A DNA stretch of 64,000 nt from Bolinopsis microptera (Eukaryota > Ctenophora > Tentaculata > Lobata > Bolinopsidae), in NCBI RefSeq assembly GCF_026151205.1, contig NC_087072.1:25633799-25697798 (forward strand). Direction: 5' to 3'. Shown piece after piece: positions 30,246 to 31,306 of the stretch. The notes under the pieces were generated by a model. That model searched no databases. It was not told where the DNA came from and saw only the letters and a program-made list of their open reading frames with translations. The translations under genes were made by a program, and so were the position numbers. Numbering within the stretch: position 1 is the first letter of the stretch; every line of letters starts with the position of its first letter.

Positions 30246-31306
30246 ATGAAACTTCTCGTTACAGCCCTCCTCTCCAGCCTCCTATGTCACACCACAGCCC
30301 TGTCCGTCGCTAAAGTATGTAAACTTAGCGACGAACAGAGATCTGTTGATCTCGCAGCTATTATAGAAAAAGGCTGGAAGTTACAAGATGATCGGGATGC
30401 CATCCACAAGGAGTTTCTCTTCCGGGATTTTAACGAGGCGTTTGGTTTCATGACGCGCGTGGCGCTCCGTGCTGACAAAGTCGATCACCATCCCGAGTGG
30501 TTTAATGTGTACAACAAAGTTAATATTACACTCTCTACTCATGAATGTGGAGGTTTAATGTGTACAACAAAGTTAATATTACACTCTCTACTCATGAATG
30601 TGGTGGTTTAATGTGTACAACACAGTTAATATTACACTCTCTACTCATGAATGTGGAGGTTTAATGTGTACAACAAAGTTAATATTACACTCTCTACTCA
30701 TGAATGTGGTGGTTTAATGTGTACAACAAAGTTAATATTACACTCTCTACTCATGAATGTGGAGGTTTAATGTGTACAACAAAGTTAATATTACACTCTC
30801 TACTCATGAATGTGGAGGTTTAATGTGTACAACACAGTTAATATTACACTCTCTACTCATGAATGTGGTGGTTTAATGTGTACAACAAAGTTAATATTAC
30901 ACTCTCTACTCATGAATGTGGTGGTTTAATGTGTACAACAAAGTTAATATTACACTCTCTACTCATGAATGTGGAGGTTTAATGTGTACAACAAAGTTAA
31001 TATTACACTCTCTACTCATGAATGTGGTGGTTTAATGTGTACAACAAAGTTAATATTACACTCTCTACTCATGAATGTGGTGGTTTAATGTGTACAACAA
31101 AGTTAATATTACACTCTCTACTCATGAATGTGGTGGTTTAATGTGTACAACAAAGTTAATATTACACTCTCTACTCATGAATGTGGAGGTTTAATGTGTA
31201 CAACAAAGTTAATATTACACTCTCTACTCATGAATGTGGAGGTTTGTCCGAGAAGGATATTGCTTTGGCAAAGTTCATCGACGGTGCCGCTAAAGTGTTT
31301 GAGTAA
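30246..31306 (+). CDS. Pterin-4a-carbinolamine dehydratase with an N-terminal signal-like segment, interrupted by a tandem-repeat intron
   Basis: Exons 30246-30552 and 31242-31306; 372 nt, 123 aa. Residues 30-123 match PCD over its whole length: [27 protein letters not shown], the catalytic [34 protein letters not shown] dehydrates 4a-hydroxy-tetrahydrobiopterin to recycle the cofactor of aromatic amino acid hydroxylases. Residues 1-20 ([20 protein letters not shown]) look like a signal peptide, unusual for a cytosolic enzyme; an ATG three codons upstream is possible. Between the exons lie exactly 13 units of 53 bp copied from the exon. Unspliced, the frame shifts and stops at 30609; spliced from the first AG|GT to the last AG|GT, the protein is whole. 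That splicing is inference. Confidence 0.85.
30500..31241 (+). repeat. 53-bp tandem array (1 exonic unit plus 13) inside the PCD gene
   Basis: The unit begins GGTTTAATGTGTACAACA and ends CTCATGAATGTGGA. Junctions are either GGAG|GTTT or GGTG|GTTT, so about half of them carry AG|GT. From 30553 to 31241 is 689 bp, exactly 13 x 53. Confidence 0.96.

What the first reader, a model, noticed from the sequence alone, without database searches (positions are those of the whole stretch)
30246..31306. PCD gene with an intron made of 13 tandem copies of its own exon
Seen: a 53-bp exonic segment occurs once in frame and then exactly 13 more times (689 bp), and the coding sequence of the C-terminus resumes immediately after. 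Joining the AG|GT of the first junction to the AG|GT of the last restores an uninterrupted PCD. Left unspliced, the array shifts the frame and stops the protein. Established: tandem duplication of an exonic segment containing AGGT has been proposed and shown to create introns. Inference: this is a newborn intron caught with its repeat structure intact, with several alternative AG|GT acceptors inside, or else a gene being killed by a minisatellite.
Basis: partly seen in the sequence, partly recalled or inferred. Interest (0 to 1): 0.87.

Follow-up and report, generated by a model that had tools for sequence, protein, structure and literature searches.

The report
Exon-born minisatellite in comb-jelly PCD gene
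A small stretch of a protein-coding gene in a comb jelly has been copied 13 extra times in a row inside the gene itself; an intact sister copy without the repeats shows that this was a gain, and the repeats look more like damage to a spare gene than like a working new intron, although only RNA data can settle that.

Summary
In detail: a 53-bp exon segment of a pterin-4a-carbinolamine dehydratase (PCD) gene is followed by exactly 13 more copies (30552-31240, 689 bp). Joining the first and last AG|GT restores the protein; unspliced, it ends after 18 foreign residues. In this genome (a ctenophore, very likely Bolinopsis microptera) Pfam and DNA searches found one other PCD locus (L001, C9). It has neither array nor intron there, so the array arose inside an exon. 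Its breakpoints lie in a 5-bp repeat (GGTTT, 53 bp apart in L001), which fits slippage and expansion. The intron reading is weak. Against 77 introns inferred in this genome, 5 donors score as low as the proposed donor and 3 acceptors as low as the proposed acceptor, which is below the median random AG; 63 of 3564 candidate joins restore the frame, none above 3.8 bits. Tandem arrays cover about 13% of the DNA sampled and 17.6% of sampled intron bases, but 0 of 4118 bases of sampled conserved internal exons. Best reading: a young exonic minisatellite that broke a spare, circularly permuted PCD copy. A weakly spliced newborn intron is not excluded (about 0.2). In passing: 4 of 77 sampled introns carry boundary-spanning "mirage"-type arrays.

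The parts
30237..30551 (+). PCD coding sequence up to the array (leader plus Pterin_4a profile positions 2-77); in-frame ATGs at 30237 and 30246; the codon aligned with the MSAAK start of L001 is CTG here (30300)
30499..30551 (+). unit 1: the exonic source copy of the 53-bp repeat, in frame
   Evidence: aligned with L001
30552..31240 (+). 13 extra tandem copies (689 bp); would be the body of the proposed intron 30553-31241
30550..30558 (+). GAG|GTTTAA, proposed donor (intron would start at 30553): 3.2 bits; 5 of 77 inferred donors score no higher
31227..31243 (+). proposed acceptor ...GTGGAG|GT (intron would end at 31241): -0.4 bits; 3 of 77 inferred acceptors score no higher; 58% of 7851 decoy AGs score at least as high
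31241..31306 (+). C-terminal PCD coding piece ([21 protein letters not shown]); with unit 14 it matches Pterin_4a profile 59-89
30112..30236 (+). 5' flank shared with L001 (118 aligned, 12 substitutions, 4 indels)
31307..31413 (+). 3' flank shared with L001 (107 aligned, 10 substitutions, 4 indels)
29966..30106 (+). displaced piece of the L001 3' flank (BLAST: L001 1909-2039) lying upstream of the gene: the PCD block is circularly permuted relative to L001

Best explanation
A PCD gene was copied as DNA to this place on C1 as a circularly permuted block. It stayed an open coding sequence for much of its history. Recently a 53-bp segment of its exon was tandemly duplicated between two GGTTT motifs and expanded to 14 units, as minisatellites do widely in this ctenophore genome. 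The array shifts the frame (53 is not a multiple of 3), ends translation after 18 foreign residues and removes the conserved C-terminal segment. The window copy is therefore most likely a freshly broken spare gene, while the C9 copy (L001) supplies PCD. Shown: the array, its exonic source, the paralog without the array, the microhomology, the poor splice signals. Inferred: slippage/unequal exchange, absence of efficient splicing, loss of function.
For: Array and units. Only two PCD loci were found, L001 and the window copy (Pfam search: 17 of 17 candidates scored, 3 matches; DNA search: 2 of 2 candidates). L001 is uninterrupted at the site: THDCGGLSKRD in one ORF. The two copies share non-coding 5' and 3' flanks, so they are DNA duplicates. 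GGTTT occurs in L001 at 1679 and 1732, exactly 53 bp apart, and is the only one of 335 CDS positions with a 5-mer repeat at that lag. Splice signals: donor 3.16 bits (5 of 77 inferred donors score no higher), acceptor -0.40 (3 of 77), sum 2.8 (2 of 77); 25% of 8073 decoy GTs and 58% of 7851 decoy AGs score at least as high; the join ranks 649 of 3564 possible donor-acceptor pairs, and the best of 63 frame-restoring joins totals 3.8 bits. Minisatellites are common: 13.0% of 131,527 bp in 27 control loci and 12.6% of the window; 17.6% of 45,171 sampled intron bp but 0 of 4118 bp in 26 internal exons. Past coding constraint: one in-frame 12-bp indel in 381 aligned CDS bases against 15 indels in 352 bp of shared non-coding flank.
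Against: No transcript was seen, so splicing is untested. The splice model scores only the donor and acceptor positions, not branch point or enhancers. The C-terminal piece is intact (no stop, no indel; NG86 dN 0.04, dS 0.16 over 21 codons), as expected if the gene still works, but this is too little sequence to count. From the MSAAK codon on, dN is 0.050 and dS 0.079, and in the N-terminal part 0.129 and 0.174: constraint on amino acids is weak, so the claim of past coding rests on the indels. The first and last junctions both carry the A that makes AG|GT while 7 of the 12 between lack it, which would favour the productive join. A duplication of this kind has been shown to make a working intron in a vertebrate gene (Hellsten et al. 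2011, as described in PMC4974935). Some inferred introns have weak sites (1 of 77 with GAG), although a few may be wrongly placed. The exon figure comes from conserved exons found by profile matches, which would rarely be found if broken by an array. P of no frameshift outside the core under neutrality is 0.025 if half of the change is on the window branch and 0.16 if a quarter.
Confidence: 0.68

Rival explanations
1. Newborn spliceosomal intron: the spliceosome uses AG|GT after unit 1 as donor and the last AG|GT as acceptor, removes 689 nt and restores PCD. This is Rogers' tandem-duplication model with a whole minisatellite as the intron; internal AG|GT sites give non-productive alternatives.
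For: The exact join restores the protein. The source segment carries AGGT and the paralog lacks the array. A pyrimidine stretch (ACACTCTCTACTC) and TTAAT occur in the unit (direct reading). 689 nt lies within the range of 77 inferred introns (98-3570, median 226). Precedents: fission-yeast introns made of 24-nt exonic repeats with spliced ESTs (PMC3629103, passages); vertebrate ATP2A1/ATP2A2 (described in PMC4974935).
Against: Weak donor (GTTTAA) and an acceptor with G at -3, seen in 1 of 77 inferred introns. The acceptor is worse than the median decoy AG, and the strongest donor in 30301-31300 (31242, GAG|GTTTGT, 8.8 bits) lies at the wrong edge of the array.
Confidence: 0.2
2. The unspliced, truncated form (124 aa, PCD lacking its C-terminal segment and ending in 18 array-encoded residues) is the functional product, for example a secreted or altered protein.
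For: The ORF is open and the leader looks hydrophobic ([18 protein letters not shown], by eye) with an in-frame length difference from L001.
Against: It loses the C-terminal segment that L001 shares with solved PCD2/DCoH proteins (alignments). The tail comes from the array and its coding would depend on the units. The Pfam search of this genome showed no further PCD locus.
Confidence: 0.07
3. Assembly artefact or allele: the true copy number differs, or the array is a rare haplotype of an otherwise intact gene.
For: Minisatellites are length-unstable; amphioxus mirage arrays differ between haplotypes (PMC3087553, passages). One assembly only was seen.
Against: The whole array is 742 bp and its units are told apart by two variable sites in a non-periodic order, which a simple collapse or expansion would not make.
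Confidence: 0.04
4. An old intron at this position was filled by the array, or L001 lost it.
For: None found.
Against: L001 is uninterrupted there and shares flanking DNA with the window copy. The array consists wholly of exon sequence, with no unique intron remnant.
Confidence: 0.01

Closest known systems
Intron gain by tandem duplication of an AGGT-containing exon segment (Rogers 1989; ATP2A1, Hellsten et al. 2011; both only as described in PMC4974935, abstract, introduction and results read)
   Same: Exonic source, AGGT at the unit junction, relative without the insertion, join restores the protein
   Different: 13 extra copies rather than one; splice sites weak by this genome's own standard; splicing not shown
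[quoted passage not shown] that paper gives the proto-splice site as AGGC, PMC4974935 describes it as AGGT)
   Same: Multi-copy exonic minisatellite with proto-splice sites lying in coding sequence
   Different: There spliced ESTs exist, although one removes more than the annotated intron; units of 24 nt keep frame, here 53 nt break it
Amphioxus mirage minisatellites (PMC3087553, passages)
   Same: Tandem arrays of exon-derived sequence with AG/GT signals inside genes; length-unstable
   Different: Mirage units span an existing exon-intron boundary; here there is no prior intron. Mirage-type arrays do occur elsewhere in this genome
Cryptococcus CNN00420 introns gained by repeat expansion (PMC2395259, passages)
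   Same: Repeat expansion alters gene structure within a lineage
   Different: There the gained introns are identical to other introns already in the gene

Membership tests
Exonic minisatellite | Several head-to-tail copies of a unit of about 10-100 bp, near-identical | tested here: met
   53 bp, 14 units, two variable sites
Exonic minisatellite | Array lies in former exon sequence | tested here: met
   Paralog L001 is a continuous coding sequence there
Tandem-duplication (Rogers) intron | Duplicated exonic segment containing AGGT; join restores the reading frame | tested here: met
Tandem-duplication (Rogers) intron | Relative lacking the insertion at the same site | tested here: met
   L001; only a paralog, no other species could be searched
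Tandem-duplication (Rogers) intron | Donor and acceptor comparable with introns of the same genome | tested here: not met
   5 of 77 donors, 3 of 77 acceptors and 2 of 77 sums score as low; acceptor below median decoy
Tandem-duplication (Rogers) intron | Array absent from mature transcripts | not testable with these tools
   No RNA data
Mirage minisatellite | Repeat unit spans a pre-existing exon-intron boundary | tested here: not met
   No intron at the site in L001
Pterin-4a-carbinolamine dehydratase (PF01329) | Profile match above the curated cut-off | tested here: met
   Window pieces 89.2 and 38.6 bits, L001 110.3 bits, cut-off 26
Processed (reverse-transcribed) copy | Similarity limited to the transcript | tested here: inconclusive
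   Window and L001 share DNA on both sides of the CDS, in permuted order, which argues against one being a retrocopy of the other; transcript ends are unknown, and whether both descend from an older retrocopy was not tested

The most novel reading that the evidence does not exclude
A newborn intron caught almost at birth: a minisatellite of 13 exon copies that is spliced out, at least in part, through its outermost AG|GT sites. It would lie in a genome where minisatellites keep touching exon-intron boundaries, so that ctenophore introns are gained, lengthened and moved by tandem-array turnover.
Probability: 0.18. Interest if true: 0.8.

Novelty: new member of a known kind. Interest (0 to 1): 0.45.

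Why it matters
How new introns start is an open question, and cases with a known source sequence are few (PMC4974935). Here the source, the breakpoints (a 5-bp repeat) and a copy without the array are all present in one genome, so one RNA experiment decides between a newborn intron and a dead gene. If unspliced, it is a natural test showing that an AGGT tandem duplication with poor flanking signals does not make an intron. This minisatellite-rich ctenophore genome, with boundary-spanning arrays at 4 of 77 sampled introns, looks like a good place to measure how often such arrays change gene structure.

Tried and rejected
Old intron: rejected from the paralog L001. Retrocopy of L001 (or the reverse): disfavoured, because DNA on both sides of the CDS is shared. 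Other splice pairs: of 3564 donor-acceptor pairs, 63 give a product containing [10 protein letters not shown] and the best totals 3.8 bits; that best one deletes most of PCD, and the proposed AG|GT join is fifth of the 63 at 2.8 bits.

A first splice model from 34 joins of one family with looser distance limits put the acceptor at -1.8 bits, below the 34; I replaced it by the stricter set (96 adjacent exon pairs, 92 with a join within one codon, 77 with zero length difference used). That set was given only part of the listed exon matches: 51 of 73 myosin, 27 of 35 CCT and 68 of 109 kinesin, because I fetched only some of the genes. Between and I left out four myosin rows (C3:9159442, C13:10331883, C3:11060755, C5:15543855), and two kinesin rows inside fetched loci were also not entered (C13:4981465, C13:5068278). 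L037 and L040 look like near-duplicate kinesin genes (equal scores), so the 77 are not all independent. A few weak introns may be misplaced boundaries, which makes the comparison lenient to the array. Decoys may include real sites of introns I did not infer.

In one search the 6-bp gap in the 'CDS N part' came from my start coordinate; one search repeats it correctly (one 12-bp indel).

The idea that the 157-bp identical stretch of the CDS (30388-30544, read) proves gene conversion is not secured: the chance of no synonymous change is 0.06 at the flank divergence.

Identity of the genome: COX1 search gave no match. I tested three of 32 iGluR exon matches: L027 did not list the receptor ML032222a among the 60 shown of 380 structures, while L028 and L029 had it as best hit; that ML032222a is from the ctenophore Mnemiopsis is recalled. 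Size, chromosome number and largest chromosome fit Bolinopsis microptera. The assembly here has 232 contigs against 346 scaffolds in print, so the species name is an inference.

Full report
What is there. Units differ at only two positions. Position 53 is A in units 1, 3, 5, 6, 9, 13 and 14 and T in the other seven, so AG|GT exists at seven junctions (the first, the last and five between). Position 19 is C in units 3 and 7. All four combinations of the two sites occur, which fits exchange between units. The gene is a pterin-4a-carbinolamine dehydratase by Pfam (89.2 and 38.6 bits for the two pieces, cut-off 26). Unspliced it gives 124 aa from the ATG at 30237, ending in 18 array-encoded residues; joined at AG|GT it gives the full PCD.

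Where it is. The window lies at 25.63-25.70 Mb of the 26.2-Mb contig C1 of a 264.65-Mb genome. Contigs C1-C13 are 15-26 Mb and the next, C14, is 0.2 Mb. Of three glutamate-receptor exons tested (of 32 matches), two have the receptor ML032222a (recalled as Mnemiopsis) as best solved relative; the third does not list it among the 60 shown. Published figures for Bolinopsis microptera are 265 Mb, 13 chromosomes and a largest chromosome of 26.2 Mb (passages of PMC11797021; 13 chromosome-scale scaffolds also in passages of PMC10232365). I take the species as very likely, not proven.

The paralog without the array. A Pfam search found three matches at two loci: the window and C9:11157048-11157320 (L001); a DNA search with L001 found only the same two. 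L001 reads without interruption through the site (THDCGGLSKRD). The copies share non-coding flanks on both sides, with 28 substitutions in 352 aligned bases and 15 indels, so they are DNA duplicates. The array is therefore a gain in the window copy, inside an exon. In L001 the motif GGTTT occurs at 1679 and 1732, exactly one unit apart, at the start of the segment and just past its end; it is the only one of 335 CDS positions with a 5-base repeat at that lag. A slippage or microhomology duplication between these motifs, followed by expansion, accounts for unit length and boundaries; that step is inference.

History of the window copy. Its block is circularly permuted against L001: the piece matching L001 1909-2039 (3' flank) lies at 29966-30106, directly before the 5' flank, and the 3' flank after the gene stops matching at L001 1931. 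That is what insertion of a circular DNA intermediate, or a trimmed tandem pair, would leave. The CDS shows one indel, of 12 bp and in frame, in 381 aligned bases, whereas the flanks show 15 indels in 352 bases. If half of the change is on the window branch and that branch were neutral, 6.5 frameshifts are expected (P of none 0.0015; 0.025 without the near-identical core; 0.04 and 0.16 if only a quarter is on that branch). So the copy was probably kept as coding sequence for much of its history. Amino-acid constraint is weak, however: dN 0.050, dS 0.079 from the MSAAK codon on, and 0.129 against 0.174 in the N-terminal part. The start codon of L001's MSAAK is CTG here, but upstream in-frame ATGs remain. 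The array itself is young or homogenised, since its units differ at only two sites.

Is it spliced? I inferred introns in this genome from neighbouring exon matches of three conserved families (myosin head, CCT chaperonin, kinesin; 146 of the 217 matches listed): 96 adjacent exon pairs, 92 with a join within one codon, 77 with no length difference used. The acceptor base at -3 was C 65, T 7, A 4, G 1 of 77; with the acceptor model left out of the choice it was C 65, T 7, A 5, G 1 of 78. The proposed junction has donor GAG|GTTTAA, 3.16 bits (5 of 77 score no higher), acceptor GTGGAG|GT, -0.40 bits (3 of 77), sum 2.8 (2 of 77). Against non-sites in the same loci, 25% of 8073 GTs and 58% of 7851 AGs do at least as well. 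Of 3564 possible donor-acceptor pairs around the array the join ranks 649th, and none of the 63 frame-restoring pairs exceeds 3.8 bits; the strongest donor in the stretch scanned (31242, GAG|GTTTGT, 8.8 bits) lies just past the array and cannot remove it. The model covers donor and acceptor positions only. Splice sites alone do not exclude use: an exonic duplication has been shown to be spliced in a vertebrate gene (Hellsten et al. 2011, read only as described in PMC4974935), and fission yeast has introns of repeated 24-nt exonic units with EST support (PMC3629103, passages). But nothing here raises this array above chance as an intron.

Setting. Tandem arrays with units of 7 bp or more cover 13.0% of 131,527 bp of 27 control gene loci and 12.6% of the window. 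They fill 17.6% of 45,171 sampled intron bases and none of 4118 bases in 26 internal exons; these exons were found by profile matches, so exons broken by arrays would tend to be missed. At 4 of 77 inferred introns an array spans the exon-intron boundary, two of the four arrays having only two copies. In the kinesin locus L043 the motif GAACTTGGTAAGT, exon end plus donor, occurs 50 times. In the window the 141-bp array at 34106-34427 repeats the end of an exon with its donor, and the two exons around it join in frame. These are like the mirage minisatellites of amphioxus (PMC3087553, passages), where RT-PCR results suggested that regular splicing is not disturbed. The PCD array differs: it has no genuine intron to belong to. 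It is thus an unusual landing, inside an exon, of a process that is common in this genome.

Judgement. Best reading: a recent exonic minisatellite that has broken, or is breaking, a spare PCD gene (0.68). Newborn intron: 0.2. The case is a new member of a known kind. Its value is that source, breakpoints and array-free copy sit together, so one transcript test decides it. On print: a search for 'ctenophore' with 'minisatellite' returned 2 papers, neither on this by title and start of abstract. A search for at least two of 'ctenophore', 'intron gain', 'tandem repeat' returned 229, of which I saw 10 listed, none on ctenophore boundary arrays by title and start of abstract.

Noticed in passing
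window 34106-34427 (minus strand): 141-bp x 2.3 array whose unit repeats the last ~31 bp of an exon together with its donor (2.9 bits) and intron start; the exons on either side join in frame (...ENTSPHNL/EKHPPCSC...). Mirage-type array 3 kb from the PCD gene. The two ORFs had no Pfam match.
   Followed up: partly
window 28574-29250: 84-bp x 8.1 array beginning inside the last part of an ORF (28165-28659, no Pfam match); the unit carries the ORF's in-frame TAA, so the array extends past the stop.
   Followed up: partly
L043 (minus strand), L041, L038: Boundary-spanning tandem arrays at 4 of 77 sampled introns of conserved genes: in the L043 kinesin gene exon end plus donor (GAACTTGGTAAGT) occurs 50 times; in L038 an acceptor stretch ATGTTTTCAG|GAGGTAACAG is repeated (TRF 24.2 copies of 21 bp); in L041 and at an L038 donor there are two copies.
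   Followed up: partly
window 29966-31413 against L001 1279-2039: The PCD block is circularly permuted relative to L001, both ends falling in the same ~23 bp of the L001 3' flank (1909-1931), as if a ~760-bp circle had been inserted.
   Followed up: partly
77 inferred introns in G000: GTTTGT (6) and GTTTGC (2) donors make up 8 of 77 sampled introns, an unexpected T at +3 and +4.
   Followed up: no
window 56264-58239: 145 copies of a 14-bp C-rich unit (TGCCCCTTTACCAC) with extreme GC skew (-0.73 over 56001-58000) and long ORFs in three forward frames (701, 590, and 343 plus 369 aa).
   Followed up: no
window 17509-18615 (-) and 24809-25780 (+): Two ORFs that read nearly the same, in opposite orientation (GIY-YIG/Penelope-like by recalled resemblance), flank a long ORF at 20793-24461 that looks like a reverse transcriptase (recalled resemblance).
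   Followed up: no
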